Part shown: in pieces, positions 28,898 to 46,531 of the stretch
How the letters are laid out: each line of letters begins with the position of its first letter
Position numbering within the stretch: the stretch's first letter is position 1
Assembly (NCBI GenBank): GCA_029964075.1
Contig: CM057135.1
Span: 7,673,001 to 7,737,000, forward strand
Direction of reading: 5' to 3'
Source of the DNA: Patiria pectinifera
Lineage: Eukaryota > Echinodermata > Asteroidea > Valvatida > Asterinidae
Length of the DNA stretch: 64,000 bases
The notes under the pieces: model-generated
Database searches by the model: none
Seen by the model: the letters and a program-made list of their open reading frames with translations, nothing else
Told to the model about the DNA's origin: nothing
Program-made: the position numbers and the translations under genes

Positions 28898-31007
28898 TCA
28901 CCAATTAAGAATCACCTTAAAACTTAAACACTCATCTCTAAACATTATGGGGGGGGGGGGTCTAACTACTCTACCACTCCTTGTGGTGTGTCTAACTGGG
29001 TAATCAATATTTTCAACTTGGTGTTCCACCTGCGCAGCGAAAGCCGCGTCGGTGGTACTACTATCCGTTTGAAAAAAGGGATGAAGATCAACCTCATTTT
29101 CTATGGGTCCCTTTCCTTTCAAACTGCCAACCGAAAAGACTTTGCTTCGAGCTTTACGGAGCCAAAGTAGAATTTCTTTGTTGGAGCAAAGTTTAAGGAG
29201 ATCGTGATGGACAATCTCGGTCCTCTTTCTTCCTTGAATGTTGTACAAAATTGGTGATATAGCTTTGATCACTAGTAGGGGTCCGCGCCATATTGGTTGC
29301 AGTTTTCGTCGCAGTTTTCGTTGCAGTTTTTGTTGCAGCTTTAGGAGCTTTGTTTAGTTTATAAACCAAGTCACCTTCATCAAACATGCTCTGATTGATA
29401 TTATGGTCATAATACCTTTTTTGGTATTTTTGCGACCCACCAATATTGGCTCTAACAATGGAATGAACCTTTCGCATGCGCTCTTTTAGATTATGTACAT
29501 GTTCATGAGGCATTGCACTTGGAGTGTTAGCATTTGTCATATCAAAGCTAAGTTCTATTGGTTTCTTCACCACCCGCCAAAGCATCATCATATTAGGTGT
29601 AAGCCCGGTACAACGGTTTGGGAGAGGACGTATTGCCCCAGTAAGTATAGGCAGATCTTCATCCCATTTTGCTACACTACCCTTTAGATGACACCTAATA
29701 GCCTGAAGTAATGTTCTATTATATCTTTCTATTTGACCATTTGAACATGGGCGGTAGGGGTTGTCCTAGTTTTTGTTATCTCGAGCAGACTACATATGGC
29801 TTCAAAAAGAGAACTTGTAAAATGTCTGCCCTGTGAGTTTGTTCGGGGCATCCAAATCTTGATATGAAATCGTTAACAATTACAATGGTAATGCTTTCTG
29901 CAGTTTGATCCTTTAAGGGATAGACCTCGACCCACTTTGTAAATTGACAAATAAGCATTAGAATGTATTTGTTTCCCGACCCAGATGGGTTGAACGGACC
30001 TAAGGTATCCAAGTGGATACGTTCTACTGGTGCACAAACATTAAATTTGGTTAATGGTGCTTTGTTTGTCCTTGATGGACCTTTGTGCACAGTACATTGA
30101 GAACAAGTGTTGACATACAGTGAAATGTCTTCAGCCATCTTATACCAATAGGCAGTCTGCTTCACCTTTTGGATGGTTTGTGTGATCCCAGGATGCCCAG
30201 ACATTTTCGAATTGTAAGAAAGTTCAATGACCTCTTGTTTCATAGCATTAGGCACTAAGAAATGTAACCGTGGGGACGGTTCGCATTCCCACTGAAAATA
30301 AAGGACTCCGTTTTGTAAGCACAAAATTGAGACATTTAGCCAAAGGTATTTCACTGCTGGGGAATAAAGATGCAGTTCGTTTTGTGGAGGGGAGATGTTT
30401 TTTCTTTCAAGTTTAATAATGGGCCCAAGTCATGTCCTGTTGCTGCATTTCTCTCAATCGCTTGTGACTGTATTTGTTCTGGAACGCCATGGATTTATCA
30501 ATCGACTGAGCAGGCATCTGGCCACTATTTTTTGAGAAATTGTCAGCAGCAGGAACATTCTGATCAGCCACCAATGAACGCCGGGTCGGACTGAGCCAAT
30601 TGTTATCGCTGCTCACTGACATATTTTCATTCGTAGCGGCAGCGGGTCCATGCACTTGTTTGTTAAGTTTGTAGTCCAAAGGAGTTGGTAAGTTGACAGG
30701 CTTTGCAATTTGGCGCACAGCCAGTTGGACGACATCGTCAACATATTCGTTGAAACGTTCCCACTGGCTGTGGATTCGCGTACAAAAGTGGCAACCACCA
30801 CATGGGAGATCTTTAACTTTCCACCCCTTTGTAGCAGTTACAAAATGGAAGATCGCAAGGTACTCGTGAAAGACAATGAGCAGTGGTATATTTTATTCCC
30901 TTTCTACGACGTATGACCATATCGTATTGACTTAATTCTTCGATCCACCTTGCCAGCACACCTGAAATTAGTTTGAAACGCATTAGCCAGGCGAGACTGT
31001 TGTGATC
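28898..31007 (-). pseudogene. Ty3/gypsy pol, distal part: end of RNase H and integrase
   Basis: On the minus strand the sequence from 31,007 reads the end of RNase H (DHNSLAWLMRFK, then ARWIEELSQYDMVI). A spacer with a Cys/His-rich CDLPFC-type segment follows, then integrase. The zinc-binding N-terminus has SGHPGITQ and CSQC. The core has RIHLDTLGPF (first Asp) and, after a shift near 29,830, NGQIERYNRTLL (catalytic Glu, about 29,725). The C-terminus reaches LLKLCSN and beyond at about 29,190-28,900. Several frameshifts exist. The other part of this gene is at 45,280-46,531, beyond a 14.3-kb insertion. Confidence 0.85.
29290..29345 (-). repeat. Short in-frame tandem repeat in the gypsy integrase tail
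   Basis: GCAGTTTTCGT-type units of about 12-15 bp repeat. On the minus strand they code KTAT repeats in the linker before the integrase C-terminal domain. Confidence 0.75.
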
Positions 31008-31545
31008 TAGTATAGGCTGTTATGTAGTTTTGCATTTTTTTTGCTAAAGAGGGAATTTTTGTCATATTTGGATAGAGTTTACCTTCCTTAGCCAGAAATC
31101 CATTGGTAACATTTTTCCATCTACCATGTGGCGGCCATCTTGGATTTCAAAATGTCCGCCATTTCGGAACTTATGTGTATAATAACTTCGGACCTGATTG
31201 TCATATGAAGTCCCTTTTGGCAGCAAACCCTAGGTTTTTGATACCAAGGAATCCAAGTAAATCATTATTGACGGGTTACTCCCAATGGATGGCTGCCATC
31301 TTGGATATTTCAAGATAGCCGCCATCTTGGATTTCATTTAAATAATAACGTTGCACCTGAATGTCGTACGAAGTCCAGTTTGGTGGCAAACGTCATATTT
31401 TTGATACCAAGGAACCCAAGTAAATCATTGTTGACAGAGTACTCCCAATGGATAGCAGCGATCTTGGATATTGTGGTGGCAATATCAATCCCATACATTT
31501 GATACCTAGGAATCTACACATTGTTACCCCGATGGATGGCATGTT
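31008..31545. repeat. Left inverted end of the 14.27-kb element, with ~150-bp tandem units
   Basis: After TAGTATAG the arm contains CCATTTGG-type and GGCCATCTTGGAT phrases. It then has repeated units with GATACCAAGGAATCCAAGTA and CCCAATGGATGGCTGCCATC. The right arm shows the same in the opposite orientation, with more units. Confidence 0.8.
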
Positions 31546-31751
31546 TCTCTGGGAAGAATGTTTCAAACCACATGGAGCAATATTTGGAGTGTAATTACCT
31601 CATGGGCATCAACAGCACGATCATAATGACTGCTGGAAATGATTGGACTGACTGTAACCTGACTGTGCAGATCAGAAGCAACCCATGCACTAAACCACCA
31701 GTGTTCAACCGTCTTTCCCAGGCACCTAATAGCACAGAAACTGGTGTGAAT

Positions 31752-32499
31752 CAGAGTTGTAACAAGTCACTAATTTTTGTGACTCGAGTCGAGTCAAGCA
31801 AAGAAGTGAGTTGAGTCGAGTCATCAGTTTAATTTGAGTCGAGTCGGGTGGAGTCAAATGTTTACCTCAAGTAAATTCCAGTTACGAATATTTGAAAACT
31901 ACATAACAAAGACAAGGGAAAAGTCACTTGTATCACTAACAATTAACAAGAAGTGAATCTTCGATCTTATAAAGGCTATCTGACTTGGATTCGGGTTTAG
32001 ATTTTATCAAAACCAACTTGCATTATACAGAACTGTATATGTTCTGATTATTTAAAAGTCGGTATGTTTCTATTTAATTTTTAAAAGGAGGGCATAAATT
32101 TAGCCAGCGTTCGAATCCAAGAACTTTATAAGAAATCGCCCAAAGCCAATGATGAAACAACAAATTGGAAAATGTGTTTAACATCCGGTTCCTCGATGGA
32201 TAGTATTTTGTGCCCTCCAGAATGATGTGGTATGGGAGTCTGTGACACGTGGACATTACAATCGGTGGCTGTAACTGTATTTGCAAAGCGGCATGAACAT
32301 AAATGTTGCACCGTAGTCAATGCAATTATTTTTCGCAACGTTTTGCTTTTATTTTTGGGACTCGAGCCTAACCACCCTTCGCTCAAGTCGAGTCGAGTCT
32401 TCTTGTGAGGACTCGAGTCGTTTGCTTGCCGCGACTCGAGTCGAGTCATTTACCCTTAGGGACTTGAGTCGAGTCGAGTCACCAGAAGTTGTGACTCTG
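31752..32499. mobile_element. hAT-like MITE with GACTCGAGTC repeats
   Basis: The ends read CAGAGTTGTAACAAGTCAC on the left and, on the complementary strand of the right end, CAGAGTCACAACTTCTGG. Both are followed by many GACTCGAGTCGAGTC copies. The CAGAG start and internal repeats resemble hAT MITEs. The expected 8-bp duplication is not evident (GTGTGAAT versus CGTTCATA). Confidence 0.45.
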
Positions 32500-32734
32500 C
32501 GTTCATATCTAGCCTAGCCACGACAGGACCAGGGTTGTCTGGGCATGTGATGCAGATGCAGTTGATGCAGAGAGCCACTAACGAACAAAAAGAAACACAG
32601 GCATACAGACAACCTGAAGTGGACTTACTAATTGCTAACTATAGACAACATTCACACGTACTTGCAGTGGAGCGGCATAGCCCCAATAATACCAAGAATT
32701 GTGCAATCTGTGATAAAATTATGAATTAAACTTC

Positions 32735-34080
32735 GCATATTGGTTCTTCATGCCTTGAAGAAATTTTTTTAGATATAAGTGGCATTTCATATTTGACTTC
32801 TGGTGACCTTTGGGAGTCAACAAACTTTAACAATTATTCTTCAAAACTTCACTTTCCTATGTCCCAAGTCTACATCATAGGTCTTCATGCAATGAAATTA
32901 ATGATCAGATTTGGGAACAACTCATGTCTGACCTTCAGTGACCTTTGAAAGGCCCATACCCTCCGTAAACCTTATTTATAGCTATTTGTAAGGTTTACTA
33001 TTTAAACCCCAACTTTTTCACGATCTAAGTCTAAATTTTAGGTGTTCATGCTATGAAAAAATATTCATATATACATGTAGGACAATTCATATTTAACTTC
33101 AGGTGACCTTTCGAGAAGTCATGACACATCTTTAGATATTTATAAGATTGACTCTGGTAAATGCAACTTGTTCATGATATGAGGAATCATATCTGACGTC
33201 TAATGAACTTTGTATACCTTATTTGTCGATATCTATCATATTTATTCCATAGTCATGTATTGAATTCAGACCCGTTGCACAAATAATTATGAGGTGTCGA
33301 CCTCTGAACTCAATTTTCTTTTTTAAATTAATGGCAGACTCGACATGCCGCGATTGGAATGCAGTGGAATATGTATATGTCAAGCAGTATTCATTATTGT
33401 GTTCTTATTACATTCTGCTATCCAGACGGACTTGGGTAACCACATTTTTAACCTTTTTACACAGCCCACTGGTCACTGTCATAGTGTGATGCTTATCCGA
33501 TGTACCTCTTATATTCTTAAAACAGGGAAATGAAAATAAGAGGTCATGACAAAATTGTCTTTGGGTCTGAATCATTACATACTATAGAGTGTTAAAAAAA
33601 ACACCTTCTTTTTCACTATTTAGACTTCAGTCATGTCAAAGTGGCATTTTGGAAGATTAAATAAATAGCGGCATTTGGGGTATACAAAGTTCATTGGGAA
33701 AAGATGTTACATCTTGACATCACTTTTTTCATCATATATCATCTCAATGAGGGTCAGTCATTGCTAAAGTGTTGAAAAGACATTTCCAATTTTGTTCGGA
33801 AAATACTTACAAAACTTTCTTGACTGATAGACTTTGTACACATCCGCTGAAGTGGCATTCTACATTCTTCCTGTTTATTGACCCTTTACAAAGGTCACCA
33901 GGGGTCAGATATGCAATGCCTCTATATCTGAAAATTCTCGTCAAGACATGAAGACGCGACATGCCAAGTTTAACCACAAAGTGCACAATTCTGTCACTAT
34001 GCCGCCCTACTATTGCAAATAATGAACAATCCAGTCCACGAATGGTCAACACTAGTCACCGTGCTATAGATACCCTTTAA
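32735..34080. other. Degenerate ~150-bp repeats; no gene
   Basis: Phrases such as TTCAGGTGACCTTT, TTCTGGTGACCTTTGG and GTCTTCATGC recur at roughly 140-170 bp spacing between 32,750 and 33,240. No coding region is supported to 34,080. Confidence 0.45.
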
Positions 34081-34084
34081 AAAA

Positions 34085-34640
34085 CTGAACTGCAAAATGG
34101 TGCTCATTCTGAAATATCCAAGATGGCTGCCATCCATCGGGGATACCTCATCAAAAATGTATTTTTTAGATTCCTTGGTATCAAGTTTAGGCCAAAAAAA
34201 AAAAGTCTCCGGTTTCTGGTATGCGCGCGCGTCGCCGTAGCCATGCGCGTCGGCAAAATGAAAAAGTTTTTTTTTCAATACAAGATGATGTTTCAAAACC
34301 GCCAAACTCACTGGTTTGCCTGGAATTCTGCTGCTGCACAATTTTAACGTGTTTTTAGATGGGGTTATGATCGAGAATAAGATTTATGTGGCCTCTCTGG
34401 ACTCCCATATATGTGCACTAAGTTTAGTCGGGCACCATTTGCAGTCATCAGCCGACATTTGAAGCCAAAAAAAAAAGAAAAAAAGCCGCGTCGCCGCACC
34501 ACTTTTGGGGCAAGCTCCATACCAGAAACCGGAGACTTTTTTTTTTGGCCTTATGGGGTTTGCCACAAAAATGGACTTTATGCGACATTCAGGTGCAACG
34601 TACGTTATTATAGGTTTTCCCGGCCAATTTCTCCAAGTTT
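34085..34640. repeat. Internal copy of the 14.27-kb element's end repeat, split by a MITE
   Basis: ATATCCAAGATGGCTGCCAT, TTCCTTGGTATCAAG, GGGTTTGCCAC and AAAATGGACTT occur in the order seen in the right arm (44,600-45,110). The unit is interrupted after GGTATCAAGTTTA by the MITE at 34,190-34,550. Confidence 0.75.
34190..34550. mobile_element. 361-bp MITE, PIF/Harbinger-like (TTA duplication)
   Basis: The terminal inverted repeat is about 33 bp, GGCC followed by an A-run and GTCTCCGGTTTCTGGTAT, with the complement at the right end. TTA stands at 34,187-34,189 and 34,551-34,553. The 3-bp TWA duplication and G-rich terminus suit PIF/Harbinger-derived MITEs. No transposase is present. Confidence 0.8.
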
Positions 34641-35936
34641 TCATTCAATTTAACGCCTGGCTCATTCGATTTAGATTGAAATTGAACGATCTATTTCACT
34701 ATCCGAGCATTCTATCGCCTTTTAGCTTCACTCGTCCCTATTGAAGATGCATTCGTATTAAAAGTATTACGTTGTTCATTCAATTTCGTCTAAACCATTA
34801 GTAAGGGGTTGATCGGGCATTCGTTTTCATTAATGGGCAAACATATTTCACATTTTGTCAAACATCTTTTAAGACTTCATACGTGTTCGTATTCCTTAGC
34901 GTAAATCATATTTGATGACCGCAAAGCGTAGAATGATTGGCTTTCTTTCTTAATTAAAGGGTATGTGCAATGAATTTTTCTCATGAATTCTGTTTGCGCA
35001 TCTCTGTGAAATGTAAGAAAACTACACATTTGACAACACTTTTTAGGTTTATCTTATTGCAAAATAATGTGCACTTTTTAAACATTTAAAAGTTTCCATG
35101 CCTTTCCGGACTAACGCTGTTACTGTGATGTCATTTCAGGAAGACAAATTATTCATACAAAATTTGCGGGAAAGGGTTGGTCATTGGCTTACTGCCATGT
35201 ACTGACACATCATTTGTGACCGGCTCTACAAAAATGGGTATTATGGGACAATTTTTTTAAAATTAGTTACATACATAGCTGAGTTGGTTACATCATAAGC
35301 TTTTATTTGGTATAGGTTTAAACCCTGTGGCACTTTGTGTTCTGGAGATATACTGATTTTTGCATAATCAAATATACTGATTTTTGCATAATCATAATGT
35401 ACAAATTTACATAAGTGACTTCCGAGATACAGCCCTTTAAACACAAGAAGTGAAAAAAGAAATGAGCTAAGCCAAAACTCTCTTGAATGATTCTTTTGAG
35501 CTATTTTTCTTTAAAAAAAAATCAGGTCTTAGTCAGGAATGCTTGAGCAATATAAATTTCAATTTTCAAGCACATTGAAGCATTTTTTCAAATATTTTTG
35601 CTAATTTGCATAATGTGAATTTTTAAATGCTTTTTGGTCAAATTAAAAGTCTATAAATCTAATGAAGTAACTGTGAGACGAGTGAGAATATACTTCTTAG
35701 CCAAGTGAGAGTCTGCTATTTGTCTAATTAATCAGCATAATCAAATTCACTTACATGAACATAACCTAAACACATACAATTTTGGTTTAAAAAAACACAT
35801 TTTTGGTAAAAAAAAAACATTTTTGTTTTGTTTTGTTGCGACTGATTGAATTTCGAGCAGTTGCATCCTTGTGATTAGGCTGGGTCAGTACATGTTTTTG
35901 TTATCACGGCTTCTCCATTGGAGGCAGGGGGGCACA
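34641..35936. other. 3' flank of the DUF7869-type gene, no feature recognised
   Basis: AT-rich with a TTTTTGCATAATCA duplication at about 35,355-35,392. It would be the 3' untranslated and intergenic part of the 14.27-kb element. Confidence 0.4.
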
Positions 35937-36141
35937 CTATGTCTTTGTGCGGTCGCTACAAAACTCGCGGATTCTCTCGAACAAATACCACTGGCGCTTC
36001 GCATCCAGGCCGGGCGGAGTCTGTGGCTCAGGTACGTCAGCAGGAGGACGGGTGCCATGGGATTTCAGCAGCTGGTAGCTTACCTCCGGGTCATCAAGGT
36101 GCTTGCGGGCATAAACAACTCCTGGCTCATCAGATGTAAAG
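35937..36141 (-). CDS. DUF7869-type gene, exon 5
   Basis: 205 bp after an ATATTTTAG acceptor, ending in TAG at 35,937. It reads SDEPGVVYARKHLDDPEV, a Pro-rich stretch and PPGLDAKRQWYLFERIREFC, a conserved-looking C-terminal helix. Confidence 0.75.
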
Positions 36142-36512
36142 CTAAAATATAATCAAAGAAAACATGGTGGGTATTAATAACACAGTCATGCAATTTACAT
36201 GTACACAGCTATGCTTTTCTGAAGGCATTTTAGCAACTCTGACTGATCATCGGTCAAACTCAAGAGCAAAAATACGAGGCCAATCAATGAGTTGAAACAC
36301 AACTTTCCTCGTGTAATATAAAATCTTCCTACATCGGTGCTTTTAAAATCAATACTTTAACACTTAGCAACACACGTGATTCAGTTCATCAGAACTTTGA
36401 AAAAATCTTGTCCAAACTGGGGTTTCGTAGGAGCCTTAAGACTGAGCTTGTATTTCCAAGAGTGGACTGTTTTACTATCGACGGAAAAGTAGATTTGCTG
36501 CATTGTACCTAC

Positions 36513-37420
36513 CGAAAGTGTTGCAAACTTGATTCCATGAAGTGGTTTGAAGAAAGGTGACAAAAACTCTTGCCAGTCAAACTGCTGGACGAATACATTT
36601 CCGGCCTCGTCACACACAAGCTGAGGAATGTTGACCCCTGTCTGAGTACTACCGTTGACAACTGCAACTACGTCTTCCAGACACGAGACCGGCGTTTGTC
36701 TGAAGCGCTGTTTGATGAGGCCAAAACACCAGTCTGGCACAAACTTAGTGTGGCCCACCACCATGAAATGCAGCTGGATGGATTGGTGCAGACCACACAT
36801 ACAGCGCAACAGCAAGTACCATAACATAAACCTGTTCTTATTCTGCCCACTGCAGTTGTCACAGTGCAATTGGGCAGTACGCTCTCCCAAACCATACCTC
36901 TGAAAAAAGTGGTTCAGATAGCTGAGGACAGCGTTGCTTCCCTTGGAAATGAGAAGTGCCTCGTCAACAAGATAGTTTATCTGCTCTGTCACACCCTCAC
37001 AGTGAATGCCGAAAATGCCGAGCTTTCTGGGCGTCAAAAAGTATACTGGACCAGGCTGCACAGGATCCGCAGGGTAATGGACCTGCTCGGCGAAGTCAAA
37101 AGAGTAGTGCATGGCCTCTACTCCACTGCATGCCTTGTTGGGCCCAAGGTGGCTGACTCCACGTAGTTCTGCTGTCTCCTTAGCCTGCTTCACAAGTGTC
37201 CGGTAAAATTCTCTCTCCCTGTTTACCTGCTGAAGGTGATTGTGCTGCAAAATGCAGCGGGCTTGCTTCTCAGCATCTGGTAAGTTTTCCGACTTGTAGA
37301 GCAGGCTATTGTTCTTCTGGCACTGCCAGCACACATCCGACATGGGCTTATGGCAAACTATGAAAGGGCAGACTCTGTTCCAGAGCTTCCGGAATGTGGA
37401 AAGTGCAACCACCCTGTTAC
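36513..37420 (-). CDS. DUF7869-type gene, exon 4 (zinc pair and RNase H-like core)
   Basis: 908 bp, with acceptor CCATAG before 37,420 and donor GTAGGT after 36,513. It contains KPMSDVCWQCQKN, then the three candidate catalytic aspartates with codons at about 37,097, 36,860 and 36,734. Also seen are a YFLTPRK strand and GHTKFVPDWCFGLIK. One indel near 36,530 is needed to join exon 5 in phase. Confidence 0.8.
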
Positions 37421-37806
37421 CTATGGAAAGTGAAAAATTGTAAACTGGATTAAAATATTTTTGCATTTGAATATTTCATCTATACTATAATTCCAGGTCT
37501 GTCGTATGAAGTTGAAAATCGGCGGGTATATTGCTTGGGACAACAGTGCCAAGATGGAACTTGTTTGGACGAGCGGTTCTCGAAAAAGCTGCAAAAAAAG
37601 CAGCATTTACTGAGCCTCAACATGGCAGATATAGCCTAGAACACGCAAAGTCCTTTTCAATTGTTTACGTCATGTTTGAGCAAAAGCGTGCGTGCTCAAT
37701 ATGACACAACAACGGGAAAAGGATGGCGCATGCATTGCAGGGCGATCATTGTCCAGAGTATTGGTGATTATAATAATAATAATAATAATGCGGGCATTTA
37801 AAATAC

Positions 37807-38078
37807 CTGACTGTTTCATGGCAAGCTTGTATTTCCTCCACACATTTGCCTTGGTTTCGCTGGATGGAAGGAGTTTGAGGTCATCCCTCTTAAAACCCGG
37901 AATACGGCCTGGCAGCAGAATAGCATGGGTCTCTGCATAGTTGCCGATGAAATTGCGTGCGCATAGTCTATCATCAAAGCTGAGATGGTTGGGGAAGGTT
38001 TTGCTCCGATGAACCCTCGGCTTGCATCCGTTTTCTTGGTAGTGTTTGTGTAGCGCAGACCACTTGTTTTTGCTCATA
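37807..38078 (-). CDS. DUF7869-type gene, exon 3
   Basis: 272 bp, preceded by a T-rich tract ending in AG and followed by GTATTT. It reads MSKNKWSALHKHYQENG, FDDRLCARNFIGNYAE and AILLPGRIPGFKRDDLKLLP without a break. The intron before it is 3.75 kb because of the Helitron-like insertions. Confidence 0.8.
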
Positions 38079-38097
38079 CTAAAAAATAAATAAAAAA

Positions 38098-39520
38098 ATA
38101 AATTGTGGACAAACATACGGCTGTTTCGGTAGCTTTTTGTGACATGTGTTCCATCAACGAAGGATGTGTAGTTCTGTTTATAATAAATGGTGGCATATAA
38201 TATGTGATTCCATTCTCATAGGGCTTTGAATTATGACGTCACATGTCACGTGATGACGTCATGATGACGTCACATAAGGTTTCATCTATTACTATAATAT
38301 TATGGTAAAGAACAACTTAGCCAGAGCAAACATCGTTGAAAGCAAGTTCACGTCTTTCACCAATTTTAAATTACAAAGCACTTCCGGTTTCAGCCAGAAG
38401 AAAGGGTCACGTGATTTATTTGCACATATTTAAAAAATGAAGAACCTCGATAATTCTATCAATTCCCGCAAAAATCATATTCAGGTCTCTCACAGTTGAT
38501 TTTATACTGATTTTTAAAGATTAAATCTTTTAATCTTTAACGAGACGTCACGTAACCCATGATGACGTCATCATGACGTCACTTCAATTTTCATCTATAA
38601 CACATCCTGGTAAATACCAACTGTCAATCCAATCGGACCAGTGGTTCTGTAGATATTGGCCTTTGAAATGTGCATGTTTAGTATGACGTCACATGTCACT
38701 TGATGACTAAATCATGACGTCACTTCAATTTTCATATAAAACACATCCCAGTTTAGGTGCATACCAAGTTTCAAACCAATCAGACCTGTAGTTCTGTAGA
38801 TATTGGCCTTCAAAATATGCAATTTTTAATATGACGTCACATGTCACGTGACGACGTCGCTTCACTTGATGACGTCATCATAACGTCACTTAAATTTTCA
38901 TCTACAACACATCCCGGTTTAGGTACATACCAAGTTTCAACCCAATCGGACCTGTAGTCATGGAGATATAGGCATTCAAAATATGCACCTATATTGTGAC
39001 GTCACATGTCACGTGATGACGTCATCGTAACGTCACTTAAATTTTCATCAATAACACATCCAGGTTTAGGTACATACTAAGTTTCAACCCAATCAGACCT
39101 GTAGTCATGGAAATATAGGCCTTCAAAATATGCGCCTATATTGTGACGTCACATGTCACGTGATGACATCATCGTGACGTCACTGAAATTTTCATCTTTA
39201 GCACATTCCGGTTTAGGTACGTACCAACTTTCAATCCAATCGGACCTGTAGTTCTGGAGATATAGCTAAATCTGTCAGATCTAGCAGAATTTTGCTAGAA
39301 AACGGTCACAATAGAACAATCGCACATAATGTGACGTCACGTGATTCATGATGACGTCACGATGATGTCAATGTTCGGCACACAACTTCAGATGCTGGTC
39401 TAAGTGTGTGTGTCAAGTATCAAGTCAATCAGATTGATTGTAGTGCCAAAAGTGCCAGTAACAAAAAAAACGTGTACAAATGCTATGGGCAAAAATGACT
39501 GGAATTTTTTTTTTTAAAAA
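38098..39520. mobile_element. Helitron-like copy with expanded internal tandem repeats, in intron 2
   Basis: It starts TTTGTGGACAAAC then GGCTGTTTCGGTAGC at the reverse-complement-like 5' motif. It shares AGCACTTCCGGTTTCAGCC, TGACGTCA and TCACGTGA motifs with the 5.8-8.6 kb copies. It ends with AACGTGTACAAATGCTATGG, as in the other copies before their hairpin. The terminal hairpin itself is missing here. Confidence 0.5.
38541..39330. repeat. Five ~145-190-bp tandem units with TGACGTCA and TCACGTGA palindromes
   Basis: Each unit has ATGACGTCACATGTCACGTG, CACTTAAATTTTCATC, AACACATCC, CAAGTTTCAA, CCAATCGGACCTGTAGT and AAAATATGC. TGACGTCA is the CRE/ATF palindrome and CACGTG the E-box. Confidence 0.85.
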
Positions 39521-39534
39521 TAGACATATGTTTG

Positions 39535-40260
39535 TGGACAAACGTAGGGCTGTTTCGGTAGCTTTTTGTGACATGTGACATGTGTTCCATCAACGAAGGA
39601 TGTGTAGTTCTGTTTATAATAAATGGTGGCATATAATATGTGATTCCATTCGCATAGGGCTTTGAATTATGATGTTTCATGTCACGTGATGACGTCATGA
39701 TGACGTCATGATGACCTCACATAAAGTTTCATCTATTACTATAATATTATGGTAAAGAACAACTTAGCCAGAGCAAATATCGTTGAAAGCAAGTTCGCAT
39801 CTTTCACCACTTTTAAATTACAAAGCACTTCCGGTTTCAGCCAAAAGAAAGGGTCATGTGATTTATTTGCACATATTTAAAAAATGAAGACCCTCGATAA
39901 TTCTATCAATTCCCGCAAAAATCATGTTCAGGTCTCGACCACCTAATTTTTTTTTTACCTATAACACATCCCGGTCTAGCCAAATACTAAGTTTCAACCT
40001 AATCAGACTTACAGTTCTGTAGATATATGACTTCATAATATGCACGTAACTTTTCAAAAATCAATAAAATAAATTAGGTGATGACGTCATCATGACGTCA
40101 TAGTCTTGGCATAATTTTTGTGTGAGGGTCTTCCTTGGCTGTAACATTGATGACGATTCCAGATCGCCAAGTTATAGAAATGGTGGCTTGAAAACGTGTA
40201 CAAAGTCAATGGGCTAACACATGTACAAAGTTAACGGGCTAAAAAAAAAACCACTGCAGA
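39535..40260. mobile_element. Second truncated Helitron-like copy in intron 2
   Basis: The first ~150 bp duplicate 38,098-38,230 (GGCTGTTTCGGTAGCTTTTT, GTGTTCCATCAACGAAGG). The copy then follows the same path to CTTCCGGTTTCAGCC and diverges after about 39,940. Confidence 0.5.
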
Positions 40261-40519
40261 AACATTGCACCTTTAAATTTGTAATTTGCCTTTGAACTGA
40301 AACATTTTTATGAAATATTACTTGATATTCTGACCCTTAGGAATATGTTCAATCGAATGACAGCGCGAAAAAAAAATACGATTTATCTTTCCTTCTCATA
40401 GTAATTCTCGGCTGAAGTTCAGAACTACTCAGTAAGATATCAGTGTTGTATAGGAAAAGACTTGTGGAAAATCCCACTGCAGAAAAACTGCACCTTTAAA
40501 TACGTAACATTGGGCTTTT

Positions 40520-41618
40520 CGGCATTATGATTTTTTATTATACGTCCCTGACTATGCGCATGCATGAACATAAAATTTGTCAAAGTTGGCCGAAAATCAG
40601 CTAAAACGGTCACTGTGATGTGGAGAGGATTTGACCTCGGCAACACGTGCTCTGCAGGCTGACTGACATACGATGTACATGTATGTGCGTAACGTACGTG
40701 TATGTACATATAGACGTTCTGTGTATGTTTTAGAGCAGAGGTATTGTCAGCCTGAAACTAACATAAAAACTGCCATTGTTGATTTTTCAGGAATTTTCAA
40801 ATGAAAAAGGGTCTTTTTATTATAACTTCCGGTCTGATGACGTCATTCGCCTAAAACTTCGCACACGTCTTAAGTGGGTCAATGTCATCATATACGACAA
40901 TATTTAGGCGATTCCGACAAACTTCGATACAGACATCTATTCAAAATACATTTTTGCAAATTGTCAACCTGTCGCTAGAGGGCGCTCGAAGATTGCATGA
41001 CGTCATTGGTAAATGATTTGAAGAATACTTTTAGCCAAGAGACTAACACCGTTAAAAGCAATTTCATATCTATTACTATTTTCAAATAATAAGCCACTTC
41101 CAGTTTTGGCCTTTTTCGACCGGAAGCAAGGGTCACGTGATTTCACGCACACTGAAAAGTGTCACAATTTAATTGCCTATAAATACACACCGGATGACGT
41201 CATCATGACGTCAACATTACACAATGTTGTTTGAATTAGGGCATTTGCTTGGACAAAGATTGGTGCAAATGAATTACTGGTAAAGAGTCCAAAATGCCCT
41301 TTGAAAATGGACAATTTTTTTTTTTATTTCTGTGTACAAAGTCTATGGGAAAAATTAAATATTCAAAATTCTATAATAAATTAGTCGATGACGTCACCAG
41401 TACGTCAATGTTCGGCACACAACTTCAGGTGCTGGTCTAAGTGTGTGCCAAGTATAAAGTCAATCGGATTGATTTTAGTGCCCAAAGTGCCGGTAACAAA
41501 AAAACGTGTACAAATGCTGAGGGGAAAATGACTGAAAAAGAAAAAGAAAAAAAAGAAAAAAAAGAAAAAAAATCTTAACGAAAACAAAGGCTGTTTCGGC
41601 AAAAGTGCCGAAACAGCC
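40520..41618 (+). mobile_element. Helitron-like non-autonomous element, copy 4, in intron 2
   Basis: It is collinear with 5,841-7,151 (CCTGACTATGC, TTTGACCTC, GTCGCTAGAGGGCGCTC, CACTTCC, TGACGTCATCATGACGTCA), with a deletion near 41,160. It ends with a hairpin at 41,589-41,618, preceded by CTTAACGAAAACAAA. Orientation is plus, opposite to the gene it sits in. Confidence 0.65.
41589..41618. repeat. 30-nt terminal hairpin of copy 4
   Basis: GGCTGTTTCGGCA pairs perfectly with TGCCGAAACAGCC (13-bp stem, 4-nt loop). Total length is again 30 nt, and the inner stem differs on both arms from the other copies. Confidence 0.9.
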
Positions 41619-41832
41619 AACAATCAAAATAGTTAATATTTTTTATTTGAGTCGTAGGTTTCGTAAGGAATACCATTGAGAAGAGCACTTGTCGCTTAGA
41701 ATGCTTGCTTACGTTTTGAAACTGAATGCGGGACCATTACAAGTACAACCATGCAACATTTCATTTTTCATTTTATTTTTTTTAAACCATGAGGCCCCCC
41801 CCCCAAAAAAAAATGCAAATCCCAGAACTTAC

Positions 41833-41998
41833 TTGTGTAGAAACAATAACGTAGCTTGGCAGATTGGCTGGCCATGAAACAGGAATGACGACCTTTGGCG
41901 TTCTCGATTCTTCTGTCGGCTCTCACGGTGGTGGACTGTTTGCTCGCCATTGGTGGTAAAACAGCGCAACTGCCCCAGGATGACCATGTCCTTCTCCT
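41833..41998 (-). CDS. DUF7869-type gene, exon 2
   Basis: 166 bp with an AG acceptor at 41,999-42,000 and donor GTAAGT at 41,832. It reads KDMVILGQLRCF, a Lys/Arg-rich middle and ICQATLLFLH. Both ends keep phase with exons 1 and 3. Confidence 0.7.
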
Positions 41999-42701
41999 CT
42001 TTTAAAACAAAATAATGGAAAGTATTTGTTTAATCTGAATAAATTGTGTGTAGTTTTTTTAAAACCAGAATGCCCAATAATCAAGTCAAAGTGACATTAT
42101 TCCTACATGTGAGGTATTTTCTTAAGTTGTGTCAAAGCCGTGCTCGACTCGGCGATGGAACCTCAGGCATGCGTCTAGAGGGGTGCGTGAAGTTCAAGCA
42201 GCGAGTCGCAGGCGGCAATGCATGTTCAAAATAAACAAATCTGCCCGTGAACAAGACGGCGCACAAGACCGTGAAATGGTTTTAATGTTGAGCTGGCTAT
42301 AGGCCCACTACTGTGCGACACTGGTTTTGCACGGGTTTTGAAAAAAAAAACACCTAATTTAATTAGTGCCCATATTTTATTTATATTTATTAGCCTATGT
42401 AAGGTTGGTCCTACCATTGGGCTGATCCTACAGGACAGACAGAGAGGTGTTATTGTTGTAACAATTATTGAATTACTGACATGACTGACAACAAATCAAA
42501 AGGCCAGATCGAACTAGACATTTTTTTTTAACTACTGGGTAATTTTTTGTTTTTCATTTTTCATCAATGAGGAATGTTAAAAGGCTTAAATTATTTGTCG
42601 AGAATCAAAATGTCAATTAACGTTAAAATGTATTATTAAAAATAACAATATTTATGTAAGTAGCCTAGAGCCTATTCCTGTTTGCAATTCGGTTGGCTTA
42701 C

Positions 42702-43090
42702 CTCTTGTCAATTCAGCCATTTCACACTGCGAATTGACGAAGTCATCAACGGTGTAACGTTCAGAACAGGGACCACCGTAAAAAGGTGACACTTACAGTG
42801 GAAAGTGCTGGCCTTTTCGCGCTGGTCATCAACCTCCAAAGCACCATTTGTACGGTCAACAATGGCAACGAAGTCTACTTCTACCAAATGTCTTTCAGGT
42901 TCATCTGTTTCTGACATTTCTTGGTCACTTTCGTCGGCTTCGGTGTCGTCAGTTGATGATGAATCCGATGATGATGTTTCACCATCGTCATCGACGCCGG
43001 AGTTGACGAAGTAGGCTTCGACAAAGCCCAAAACATCGTGTACTACACGGTCCAGATTTTCATCACGTAGCTCGTTCAGTGCCTCAGCGA
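42702..43090 (-). pseudogene. DUF7869-type gene, exon 1
   Basis: It contains LNELRDENLDRVVHDVLGFV, an acidic Ser/Asp stretch (SSSDSSSTDDTEADESDQ) and a Cys-rich end. It ends AGAG/GTAAGCC at 42,702. A missing T near 42,780 shifts the frame, and a second small shift near the presumed ATG (about 43,105) leaves the start uncertain. Confidence 0.65.
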
Positions 43091-43099
43091 GACACTAAT

Positions 43100-44589
43100 C
43101 CCTCGAACATTACTCAGCAAATGACACGAAAAATAGCGTAGTATTTTTCTTGAAAATTACGTAAATATTTAGCGAAACGCCGATGCAAAAAGAACTTCAG
43201 ACGAACAGCTGCTGAATAGAAAACGTGGCAGATGTGATCATTGCACATACGCGATCTTCGATGCAGCGCGTTTTGCCCAATCAAGGTGTCGTATTCTGTA
43301 CACGTGATTGACAAACATGACGTCCCTGGCAACAAGAAGGTTTTGTTTACAGTTTTTTCTCCTTCCAAAAGTCATTTGCATGTGACCCATAACCTTTATT
43401 AAGCCCACATTTGGATAGAGTAGGCTTCCAGCTTTCGGTTGATACCAAATTGTTGATAGGGGGTGCTAAAGCCGTATCACTACGAAAGCGTAACACTGGA
43501 GGTTTTTCTGACCTAAAACTGACACAGAGTCACACAAAAGACGAACACAATGGACACAAAAACGTTTGTTTTTTATCTTTATTCATCAATATTTTTTTCT
43601 TGTCAATAAATTATGAAAGTGTTGATATAATAGAAACCAAAAAAAACAACAAACAAAAACACGTTGAAATATTTTTTTTCACCTTCTCCACATTGAACAG
43701 CCCTTCACGTGAAACAGCATAGTGTCCCTTAATACCCTTTTTCGCAGAGCGGGTCACATATAATCACCAAATAAAAAAAAATTATGACAGCAAAATATAA
43801 AAAATTCTAGCAACTTTTTTTTTGCTGAAATAGCCGTGTAACATTAATCATGCTCGGAATGCCATCACAGGTTTTCTAATGAATATGAAACTTTGCATTA
43901 GCATAAAAACGGAGAAGGCACTAAAAACACCTCTCGAAATGGAAAATAAAACTTGCAAATAAGGTTAAATGTGTCACAGAGATGTATTTCCAAGGTCTGC
44001 ATTGTAACCTTTGCATGGGCCCTGTGAATACGGTAAGTGTTCGGTCAGACATTCGCAAGAAAACATTTAAGAAATAACTCAAGAGAAGTGTTCCCGACGG
44101 TACCACCATTGCCAAACATACGTGTCTCGATGTCTTGCACGTCAGGAAATCGTCAACGTAAAAAATCCCCTTGATCAAACGTTTAAACAAGTACATGTAT
44201 ATAGAAAAGTCTTAGTCCCCTTCAATTCAGTCATCAATATTTTTTTTTGGGGGGGGAATGAACCTCGGAGAAAATAGGAACAAATATCGATTAAAAATCT
44301 TACTAATTTAAATAACCAAACGATGAAAGCGATTGCCCATAGACAAATAAGAAACGAAAAGCATGGTTATACGTTATAAGCGCACAGATGTTCGCTAATT
44401 TGAATGCGTCAACCGTCAAAAGGTTACAAAGACTTAACAGCAAAATTCACAGCAAAATCTTGGCTGCCTTAAAATGAAATTGAATGAACCCCAAGTGAAA
44501 AAAAAACCGAATTGGACCACATGTGCAAAGCTCACGCGAAATTGAATGGCTGATAATGAAACTGATTAGAACAATTCGGAAATTCGCCG
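43100..44589. other. Upstream region of the DUF7869-type gene, no other gene seen
   Basis: AT-rich with several A- and T-runs. It would contain the promoter of the inferred transposase gene. No TATA box or other element stands out enough to call. Confidence 0.4.
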
Positions 44590-45279
44590 GGAAAACCTAT
44601 ATTAGAATAAAATCCAAGATGGTGGTTATTTCTAAGTATCCAAGATGGCTGCTATCCATTGGGACTACCCCGTCACATTTGATTTACTTGGGTTCCTTGG
44701 TATCGAAAACATAGGGTTTGCCACCAAAATGGACTTCATACGACAATCAGGTCCGAAGTTATGATACAAATAAGGTCCGAGACGGCGGCCATTTTGAAAT
44801 ATCCAAGATGGCTGCAATCCATAGAAAGTACCTCACCAACAATGATTTCCTTGGGTTCCTTGGTATAAAAAACGTGGGGTTCGCCACCAAAATGGACTTC
44901 ATACGACAATCAGGTCCGAAGTTATGATACAAATTAGGTCCAAAATGGCGGCCATTTTTAAATATCCAAGATGGCTGCCATCCATTGGGAGTTCCCCGTC
45001 AACAATACTTTACTTGGGTTCCTTGGTATCAAAAAACAGGGTTTGCCACCAAAATGGACTTCATGAGACAATCAGGTCTGAAGATATGATACACATTAGG
45101 TCCGAAAAGGCGCCCATTTTGAAATCCAAGATGGCCGCCACATGGTAGATAGAAAAGAATGTTACCAATGGATTTCTGGCTTAGGAAGGTAAACTCCATC
45201 CAAATATGACAAAAGAATCCTTCTTTAGCAAAAAAAAAAAAATGCAACGGTCAAAAATGCGACATAATGTACTATACTA
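44590..45279. repeat. Right inverted end of the 14.27-kb element, three ~160-bp tandem units
   Basis: The units contain ATATCCAAGATGGCTGCCAT, ACTTGGGTTCCTTGGTAT, TTTGCCACCAAAATGGACTT and CGACAATCAGGTCCGAAG. The last unit runs into CCACATGGTAGATAG and ATACTATA at the terminus. In reverse complement this matches the left arm at 31,008-31,500. Confidence 0.85.
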
Positions 45280-46531
45280 ATCTGTCCTTACGTAAAACTT
45301 TCATTATGAAACTACCGTAACTGATAACTCGTTCGCAAGTACCTTGAAATTGAAAAAGCTCCGCCCCGAAGGCGAAGTCAGAGGCATCCGTATCTAAGAT
45401 AAATGGGTCGTCGCTATTATTCTTAGGAAACGCTAAAATTTGGCTAGTTGTCAATACACTGATCAAGTGGCGAAAGGATTGTTCGTGTTCATCCTGCTTC
45501 AGGAACTTTGTGTTTTTCTTTGTGAGATCGTATGGAGGTATAGCTAGTCTTGCAAATCCTTGATGTGATTTTTGTAATAATTGGCGAGCCCCATAAATCT
45601 GTCCACATCCTTCTTCGAGGATGGCTTAGCCCAGTTTGACTACTTCTATGCAACTTGGGTTAGGTGCAATACCTATTCTACTCACAAGTTTTCCATGGAA
45701 AACAACATGTTCCTGAAATAAAGACATGTTGCTGCCTTTAGTTTCAGGTTGTGTTGACGGAACCTCTCTAGTGCTTTGCCTAGTGCACCCATAGTTTCGT
45801 CAAAATCTTTCCCTAGGATAATTACATCATCTTAATAGGGGATTGTCTTGGAAGGAAGTCCTGGCCTAAGTATCAAATTCATTGCCCGTTGAAACGTTGC
45901 TGGGGCCCTACATAGCCCGAAAGGCATAAGGCAGTATTGAAACAGTCCATACTTTGTTGTGAAAGCTGTTTTATTTTTGTCGTCTTCCTCAAGCTCTATT
46001 TGATAATAACCACTAGTCATATCAAGTGTACTGAAGAATTGGGTTCCTTCCAGAACATCTAAACATTAATCAATGTTTGGTAAGGGGAAAGCATCTTTAA
46101 TAGTGGCGTTATTAAGAGCCCTGTAGTCAATAAAGAAACGGACTTTTTCATCTTTTTTTCTAACGAGCACTGGGGGTGAAGCCAATCCTGAAGTTGAAGG
46201 TTCTATTACACCCATTTCTAATGATGAATCCAGATGAGCTTTCTCCTCATTTTCAAAACCTAATGGGGTCCTTCGCATTTTTTGCTTGATTGGGGTAGCC
46301 GTGCCAGTACTGATCGGATGTTTTATATCTGAGTATTTTTCCCAAATCTAGGTCATCCTTAGAGAACACATCAAAATATTCTGTGACTAATTTTGCCACT
46401 TCACCCGATTGCTCCGGTGTAAGATGTACACATGATTTTTTCTTTCTTATTTGTTCAAATTGTCTGTAATTGTTGTTATGCCTGTCAAGTGTCCGTGTGT
46501 ATCCTGTAACCGTCCTGTTAAGATGAACCAA
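45280..46531 (-). pseudogene. Ty3/gypsy pol, proximal part: reverse transcriptase and start of RNase H
   Basis: On the minus strand, 46,531 to about 46,250 reads a linker (VFSKDDLDLG). Then come the reverse transcriptase (MGVIEPSTSGLASPPVLVRK, VRFFIDYRALN, GYYQIELEEDDKNKTAF, FGLCRAPATFQ) and the RNase H start (FILDTDASDFAFGAEL). Several frameshifts are present. The expected catalytic YxDD at about 45,830 is read as YDDVI-like in another frame and is altered. The gene stops at 45,283, where the 14.27-kb element enters. Nothing of gag or protease is seen beyond 46,531, where a LINE fragment begins. Confidence 0.85.

What the first reader, a model, noticed from the sequence alone, without database searches (positions are those of the whole stretch)
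31008..45279. A 14.27-kb DNA transposon in which a DUF7869-type protein is the likely transposase
Seen: the block interrupts a gypsy RNase H, has ATC on both sides, restores the gypsy frame when removed with one ATC, and has inverted ends starting TAGTATAG. Its only large gene (five exons, minus strand) has three aspartates in an RNase H-like order (spacing 78 and 41) with the motif LHCDNCSGQNKN. Known: proteins of this type are listed only as a domain of unknown function, as far as I recall. Inferred: they are DDD transposases of a superfamily with 3-bp duplications.
Basis: partly seen in the sequence, partly recalled or inferred. Interest (0 to 1): 0.88.

Follow-up and report, generated by a model that had tools for sequence, protein, structure and literature searches.

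The report
Nested jumping genes; DUF7869 is transposase
The block is several jumping genes inserted one into another, and the uncharacterised protein in the innermost one looks like the enzyme that moves its own DNA element, a kind that also occurs as simple insertion sequences in bacteria.

Summary
The insertion at 31008-45279 is real: TAGTATAG ends, ATC on both sides, gypsy RNase H motif restored on removal. But it is not one transposon. Thirteen other end loci of the TAGTATAG family read straight through the place where the middle 10 kb begins. The block is a ~4.28-kb TAGTATAG element (3-bp duplications), interrupted by an element with TAGGTTTTCCCGGC ends (34611-44599), interrupted in turn by an 8.54-kb element (35215-43758) that holds the DUF7869 gene and has its own 36-nt TGTGACCGG ends. 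So TAGTATAG and the 3-bp duplication do not belong to DUF7869.

The wider idea, that DUF7869 proteins are transposases, survives on other evidence. In the same genome 7 of 13 DUF7869 loci read have TGTGAC inverted ends on both sides. Two copies are 97% identical from end to end with unrelated flanks. Seven bacterial loci encode relatives, three as one 631-655-aa ORF between inverted repeats in 2.1-2.7-kb units. Flanking 4-mers fit AWWT at 22 of 24 ends and are identical in 7 of 12 elements, as published for Sola2-type elements. Sola kinship is my best guess, untested by sequence.

The parts
31008..45279 (.). outer element: TAGTATAG-ended transposon (about 4.28 kb without the inserts, no transposase seen), interrupting a gypsy RNase H frame; 163-bp repeats near both ends
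   Evidence: paired ends elsewhere; flanking 3-mers
31005..31007 (.). left ATC target duplication of the outer element
45280..45282 (.). right ATC target duplication of the outer element
34611..44599 (.). middle element with ends TAGGTTTTCCCGGCsAATTTC, flanked by TA (34609-34610, 44600-44601); about 1.44 kb without the innermost insert
   Evidence: (I15); uninterrupted sites in other TAGTATAG copies, compared by eye
35215..43758 (-). innermost element: DUF7869 transposon, 8544 bp, gene on minus strand
   Evidence: inverted ends 35215-35250 / 43723-43758, 36 nt, 86%, E=9.7e-5; same kind of end at other DUF7869 loci
35212..35215 (.). left flanking 4-mer ATTT (AWWT)
43758..43761 (.). right flanking 4-mer ATAT (AWWT), one base unlike the left
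36381..37475 (-). main exon: DUF7869 domain, D127 / D206 / D248, DNCSGQNKN
37799..38152 (-). exon upstream (LLPGRIPGFKRDDLKLLPSSETK block)
   Evidence: tblastn with relatives
41766..42008 (-). exon further upstream
   Evidence: tblastn with relatives
35820..36167 (-). C-terminal exon
   Evidence: tblastn with relatives
42708..43094 (-). possible first exon (acidic, Cys-rich end); a stop lies directly upstream and there is no ATG where c9 and L054 have one
   Evidence: tentative

Best explanation
The 14.27-kb block is a nest. A TAGTATAG element (3-bp duplication) entered a gypsy retrotransposon, a TAGGTTTTCCCGGC element (TA duplication) entered that, and a DUF7869 element with TGTGACCGG ends entered the latter. 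The DUF7869 protein is the transposase of its own element: an N-terminal Cys-rich and DNA-binding-like part recognises the TGTGAC inverted ends (inferred), and a DDD core cuts the element out and joins it into AT-rich AWWT sites, duplicating the target (4 bp, or only its inner part). The family lives both in animals (4.7-8.5-kb elements with introns, nested inserts apart) and in bacteria (2.1-2.7-kb insertion sequences with one long ORF). It most likely belongs to, or is a sister of, the Sola superfamily. Shown: nesting, ends, AT-rich flanks, bacterial ISs, conserved D-D-D. Inferred: catalysis, the cut-and-paste route, end recognition, exact duplication length, Sola kinship.
For: Nesting: 13 of the 29 other end loci show the uninterrupted junction (12 if C301, which has C11's flanks, is left out). 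Matches over 100 bases of these 29 loci stop at 34.2-34.6 kb and resume at 44.5-44.6 kb, but for 1-2 hits at 40.3-41.3 kb (each locus reaches only about 2 kb inward, so the junctions are the proof). Of 11 paired copies, ten are 3.9-6.1 kb, one 21 kb. DUF7869 ends: of 13 loci read, 7 have both TIRs (window, c7_13.9, c9, c7_19.9, c7_9.57, L054, L055), self-match E 1e-4 to 8e-11; 4 have one, 2 none convincing. Two natural uninterrupted sites for c7_19.9 read GACATATTTC. L054 and L055 are 97.2% identical over 5.2 kb with unrelated flanks. Translated comparison of unlike elements finds no second shared gene: 6 of 14 pairs have no match outside the DUF7869 exons, five have 1-2 short ones, three close pairs have 7-27, those printed lying in the first 1.15 kb or at the ends. 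Bacteria: 7 loci; L058 635-aa ORF in a 2118-bp TIR unit, L060 631 aa in 2066 bp, L061 655 aa in 2719 bp. D430 and D472 invariant, D351 at least 90%, in 38 proteins, 5 of them from these bacterial loci and 5 from named animals. AWWT at 22 of 24 flanks, identical in 7 of 12.
Against: No structure could be predicted. Profile comparison with IS630 transposases gave probability 0.2%, no better than column-shuffled controls. Matches to a DDE family (PF07592) are below its cut-off: 20 of 70 members of A1 at E<=0.1, best 1.2e-4, and it is not among the 25 of 35 families shown for the 38 members of A2. Flanking 4-mers differ by one base in 5 of 12 elements, the window's included. I set the bacterial boundaries knowing the AWWT idea, which flatters the count. 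L060 also allows an exact 5-bp TATGA or 3-bp ATG with ends set further out. L052's single end is TATT, not AWWT. Only 13 of about 45 loci were read; no other named animal genome could be searched for ends. Excision or integration was not observed.
Confidence: 0.85

Rival explanations
1. One 14.27-kb transposon with TAGTATAG ends and 3-bp duplications, moved by DUF7869.
For: Ends, ATC duplication and sole large gene are real.
Against: 13 other TAGTATAG end loci read through the insertion junction; the gene has nearer ends of another kind, shared with other DUF7869 loci that have no paired exact TAGTATAG ends.
Confidence: 0.03
2. DUF7869 elements are a branch of the Zator/ISAzo13 group.
For: Weak PF07592 matches in 20 of 70 relatives; NCBIfam ISAzo13 model in 4 of 70, best E 0.0042.
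Against: Zator and ISAzo13 make 3-bp duplications (PMC10045372, passages). In 12 elements no 3-bp duplication recurs at one place: exact 3-bp matches at symmetric ends within 8 bases of the start used occur in 3 of 12 (window CAC, L055 TAC, L060 ATG), about the 3.2 expected by chance (12 x 17 / 64, my arithmetic). PF07592 is not among the families shown for the wider set.
Confidence: 0.12
3. DUF7869 is a passenger or regulatory gene carried by elements moved by another transposase in trans.
For: Catalysis untested; fold not modelled.
Against: No second gene is shared between unlike elements; two bacterial TIR units of about 2.1 kb are nearly filled by the one ORF; its conserved residues include a spaced D-D-D.
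Confidence: 0.07
4. DUF7869 elements represent a transposon superfamily not yet described, distinct from Sola and Zator.
For: No paper in the held library names DUF7869 or holds its motif in the four spellings searched; the source names shown are hypothetical, uncharacterized or DUF7869 (120 rows each of 689 and 270).
Against: Sola2-type elements are described with AWWT 4-bp duplications (PMC3627910, passages), and Sola is recalled as DDD with bacterial members.
Confidence: 0.4

Closest known systems
Sola superfamily (Sola1/2/3; Bao et al. 2009, recalled, not held)
   Same: DDD transposase and bacterial members (recalled); AT-rich 4-bp duplications AWWT (ATAT, AAAT, ATTT) stated for Sola2-type elements in PMC3627910 (passages); Sola1 mean length 5445 bp in bivalves (PMC10294476, passages)
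   Different: sequence relation not tested; the Sola2-type transposase in PMC3627910 is 888 aa, the bacterial proteins here 631-655 aa; termini not compared
Zator / ISAzo13 (TP36, PF07592)
   Same: the DDE-type family hit most often by profile, weakly
   Different: 3-bp duplications (PMC10045372, passages); none recurs here
Tc1/mariner and IS630
   Same: five star elements have TA on both sides, inside ATAT; D-D-D/E core of the same general kind
   Different: four of five bacterial elements (L059, L060, L061, L063) allow no TA duplication in the range tested; no profile similarity to IS630; spacings 78 and 41
PF25273 DUF7869
   Same: all 70 and all 38 aligned relatives match it
   Different: listed as a domain of unknown function; here given a role

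Membership tests
Sola superfamily | DDD catalytic triad (recalled) | tested here: met
   D at three conserved positions in 70 and 38 sequences; P0091 has G at the first; activity not tested
Sola superfamily | 4-bp target duplication, AWWT for the Sola2 type (PMC3627910 passages) | tested here: inconclusive
   22 of 24 flanks fit AWWT, 7 of 12 pairs identical; 4 bp and its inner 2 bp cannot be told apart where A and T are fixed; L060 allows another reading
Sola superfamily | significant similarity to Sola transposases | not testable with these tools
   no Sola sequence could be obtained
Zator / ISAzo13 | 3-bp target duplication | tested here: not met
   exact 3-bp matches in 3 of 12 elements at unlike places, as by chance
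Zator / ISAzo13 | PF07592 transposase domain above cut-off | tested here: not met
   window exon 18.8 bits against cut-off 26.9; 20 of 70 relatives at E<=0.1
Tc1/mariner (IS630 group) | insertion at TA with TA duplication | tested here: not met
   TA on both sides in 5 of 7 star elements, but in 0 of 4 bacterial elements L059, L060, L061, L063; L058 allows TA at another place
Tc1/mariner (IS630 group) | profile similarity of the catalytic core | tested here: not met
   hhalign probability 0.2%, within shuffled controls; only one IS630 alignment of 35 sequences was used
DDE/D transposons (general) | TIR-bounded mobile unit with target duplication and its own transposase gene | tested here: met
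   the duplication is exact in 7 of 12
DDE/D transposons (general) | RNase H-like fold | tested here: inconclusive
   structure prediction off; weak profile evidence only

The most novel reading that the evidence does not exclude
DUF7869 defines an unrecognised transposase superfamily spanning bacteria and animals, with a DDD core (spacings 78 and 41), a Cys-rich N-terminal part, and AWWT as target, whose bacterial insertion sequences are also unnamed; proteins in public databases under this DUF would then be transposon enzymes.
Probability: 0.38. Interest if true: 0.68.

Novelty: new member of a known kind. Interest (0 to 1): 0.52.

Why it matters
A protein domain listed as of unknown function gets a concrete, testable role, and with it proteins in molluscs, annelids, nemerteans, echinoderms, fish (names) and bacteria now called hypothetical or uncharacterized. 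It also gives a bacterial counterpart with compact, single-ORF elements, the easiest form in which to test activity. For genome readers it is a warning: a restored reading frame plus matching duplications characterises the outermost insertion only, and says nothing about which gene inside belongs to it.

Tried and rejected
Rejected: that TAGTATAG and ATC belong to DUF7869. Rejected: that the middle element's TAGGTTTTCCCGGC ends are those of DUF7869 (I held this for a while), because TGTGACCGG ends lie nearer to the gene and are shared with other loci. Rejected: 3-bp duplication for DUF7869 elements. A TA-only reading was favoured until the bacterial copies spoke against it.

Led nowhere: structure prediction (switched off); PDB by sequence (nothing meaningful); viral contigs (no relative confirmed); plasmids (no match); IS630 profile comparison (no signal); papers for DUF7869 or its motif (none); the 2009 Sola/Zator paper is not held. 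A 21-kb TAGTATAG copy on C8 could not be read inside.

It also said, without a test, that DUF7869 is the only conserved gene; that test was then run. Confidence went from 0.87 to 0.85. The C8 copy of the outer family was dropped from the clear 3-bp duplications, because its right end is shortened.
Full report
Observation. The outer boundaries are as described. ATC lies at 31005-31007 and 45280-45282, the ends begin TAGTATAG, and removal with one ATC restores the gypsy RNase H motif RTDHNSLAWL. The main exon matches DUF7869 (PF25273, E=3.2e-16) and, below its cut-off, PF07592. The spacing of the three aspartates is right.

Nesting. The left 493 bases of the block gave 105 matching pieces in the window's genome (613.5 Mb, 1020 contigs; 40 of 273 candidates scored, so a lower bound). 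Eleven places have a + and a - end on one contig; the sizes are 3.9-6.1 kb in ten and 21 kb in one. C301 has the same flanks as C11 and is not an independent copy. Where both ends were held, the flanking triplets are TTT/TTT (C21), GAT/GAT (C11) and TAG/TAG (C20, 11.27 Mb); in C8 the right end is shortened and TAG/TAG is only possible. So the outer family does make 3-bp duplications. When the block was compared with the 29 other end loci (about 3.5 kb each), matches over 100 bases stop at 34.2-34.6 kb and resume at 44.5-44.6 kb, with 1-2 hits at 40.3-41.3 kb between. Since each locus reaches only about 2 kb inward, the proof is the junction itself: 13 of them (L016, L020, L021, L023, L026-L030, L033-L036) read through it, six (L020, L026, L029, L030, L035, L036) as GTTATTATTAAAATGAAATCCAAG and the others with small differences. 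The window reads ...GTTATTA|TAGGTTTTCCCGGC ... GCCGGGAAAACCTA|TATTAGAATAAAATCC..., which by eye gives an insert at 34611-44599 with TA duplicated.

Inside that insert a second pair of inverted ends, TGTGACCGGCTCTACAAAAATGGGTATTATGGGACA, lies at 35215-35250 and 43723-43758 (36 nt, 86%, E=9.7e-5) and encloses all recognised exons.

DUF7869 elements in the same genome. The exon protein has 72 matches, about 45 loci when pieces within 10 kb are joined. I read 13 loci with 5-20 kb each. Seven have both ends: window; c7_13.9 (L045+L046, 6.4 kb); c9 (L049+L050, 4.7 kb); c7_19.9 (L041+L042, 5.9 kb); c7_9.57 (L043+L044, 10.8 kb with a 4.9-kb TTAA insert); L054 (5.3 kb); L055 (5.3 kb). Four have one end (c12, c22, L051, L052). 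In two nothing convincing was found (L053, 8 kb; L056, 5 kb). The ends are of four kinds, all starting TGTGAC. L054 and L055 are 97.2% identical over 5.2 kb, with a last 0.16 kb at 95%, and their flanks are unrelated. In six elements full-length relatives match exon after exon in order. A translated comparison of the 14 pairs of unlike elements gave no match outside these exons in six pairs, one or two short ones in five, and 27, 9 and 7 in window/c7_13.9, window/c9 and c7_13.9/c9; of these at most eight a pair were printed, and they lie in the first 1.15 kb (the tentative first exon and upstream) or at the ends. So I see no second shared gene.

Target. c7_19.9 sits in a repeat of which two other copies are uninterrupted. 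They read GACATATTTC where the filled site reads GACATA-TGTGACC...GGTCACA-TATTTC. This allows TA, or ATAT with one base less of the element at each end (or no duplication with one base more), and not 3 bp.

Bacteria. A scan of the prokaryote genome collection with the alignment gave 7 loci (35-50% identity in the best segment; Deltaproteobacteria, Legionellales, Nitrospirales, Thiomargarita twice, Desulfobacterales, Anaerolineales). L058, L060 and L061 have single ORFs of 635, 631 and 655 aa between inverted repeats in units of 2118, 2066 and 2719 bp; L063 has two ORFs in 2064 bp; L059 (645-aa ORF) holds an ISL3-type transposase as well. Neighbouring genes look bacterial or are other IS genes (AlbA_2, DDE_3, FG-GAP; HPr kinase-like and rhodanese-like below cut-off). 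Most contigs are short and metagenome-assembled and could join different copies. For L057 and L062 I assigned no TIR pair. Flanking 4-mers: AATT/AATT (L058), ATTT/ATTT (L063), ATAT/ATGT (L060), ATAT/ATTT (L061), ATAT/AAAT (L059). With the seven star elements, 22 of 24 flanks are AWWT and 7 of 12 pairs identical; I chose the bacterial boundaries with AWWT in mind. Of the four one-ended star loci three fit AWWT (ATAT, ATTT, ATAT) and L052 does not (TATT). A scan of symmetric end positions found the same 4-bp match ATAT at one place in five star elements, AATT in L058, TATGA (5 bp) or ATG (3 bp) in L060, and scattered 3-bp matches in window and L055 (L063's ATTT lies outside the scanned range and is). 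TA is possible in five star elements and at another place in L058, not in L059, L060, L061, L063.

Protein. 38 proteins (5 from bacterial loci, 5 from named animals, 28 without a shown host) share invariant D430, N431, C432, Q435, N436, K437, N438, H466-T467-K468-F469, P471, D472 and, in 90% or more, D351 (L058 numbering). A tree of 48 rows puts the 15 animal rows, window included, with the unnamed P0189 in one clade (100/100) beside a 13-row clade with the Legionellales, Thiomargarita and Deltaproteobacteria proteins; the Nitrospirales and Desulfobacterales proteins fall in a third, so bacteria are not one group (midpoint root, direction of transfer open). Of 689 hits to the exon and 270 to the bacterial protein, 120 each were listed and no name shown says transposase.

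What it is. The best reading is a DNA transposon whose transposase is the DUF7869 protein. Zator does not fit in duplication length (3 bp in PMC10045372, passages). Tc1/mariner does not fit in target or in profile comparison with IS630. I therefore file it as a DDE/D-type transposon family, Sola membership open.

Limits. No structure, no activity, no named second animal genome. PF07592 matches are weak and inconsistent. One-base differences between flanks in 5 of 12 are unexplained: mutation, chimeric contigs, wrongly set ends, or a mechanism that carries a flanking base are possible.

Noticed in passing
genome contig C7 (44.85 Mb), among them C7:41.0-43.2 Mb: 24 of about 45 DUF7869 loci lie on this one contig, 7.3% of the genome (binomial 4e-16; loci are not independent). 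Three named Patiria miniata DUF7869 proteins (P0003, P0025, P0111) have the same longest-contig length, 42.4 Mb.
   Followed up: partly
31008-34600 and 44600-45279: The TAGTATAG family has no transposase seen, 3-bp duplications and 163-bp tandem repeats inverted at both ends; one copy on C8 (1597981-1618993) is 21 kb and may be autonomous or nested.
   Followed up: partly
12 DUF7869 elements: Left and right flanking 4-mers differ by one base in 5 of 12 elements, in three of them although both fit AWWT; L060 instead has an exact 5-bp match further out.
   Followed up: partly
38138-41410: Introns of the DUF7869 gene hold repeats rich in TGACGTCA (ATGACGTCATCATGACGTCA-like units, partly 147 bp apart).
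   Followed up: no
34188-34553: Inside the outer element, a 366-bp stretch with 36-nt inverted ends (TAGGCCAAAAAAAAAAAGTCTCCGG..., 92%), perhaps a further small insert.
   Followed up: no
L043+L044 about 11.82-16.72 kb; L040:1002-1529: Two different inserts at TTAA in DUF7869 elements: 4.9 kb with CACGGCAG ends, and about 0.5 kb with AGGGAAGATACAACATTTGC ends.
   Followed up: no
L059:2281-3621: An ISL3-type transposase unit lies within the inverted ends of a bacterial DUF7869 element, so nesting occurs there too.
   Followed up: partly
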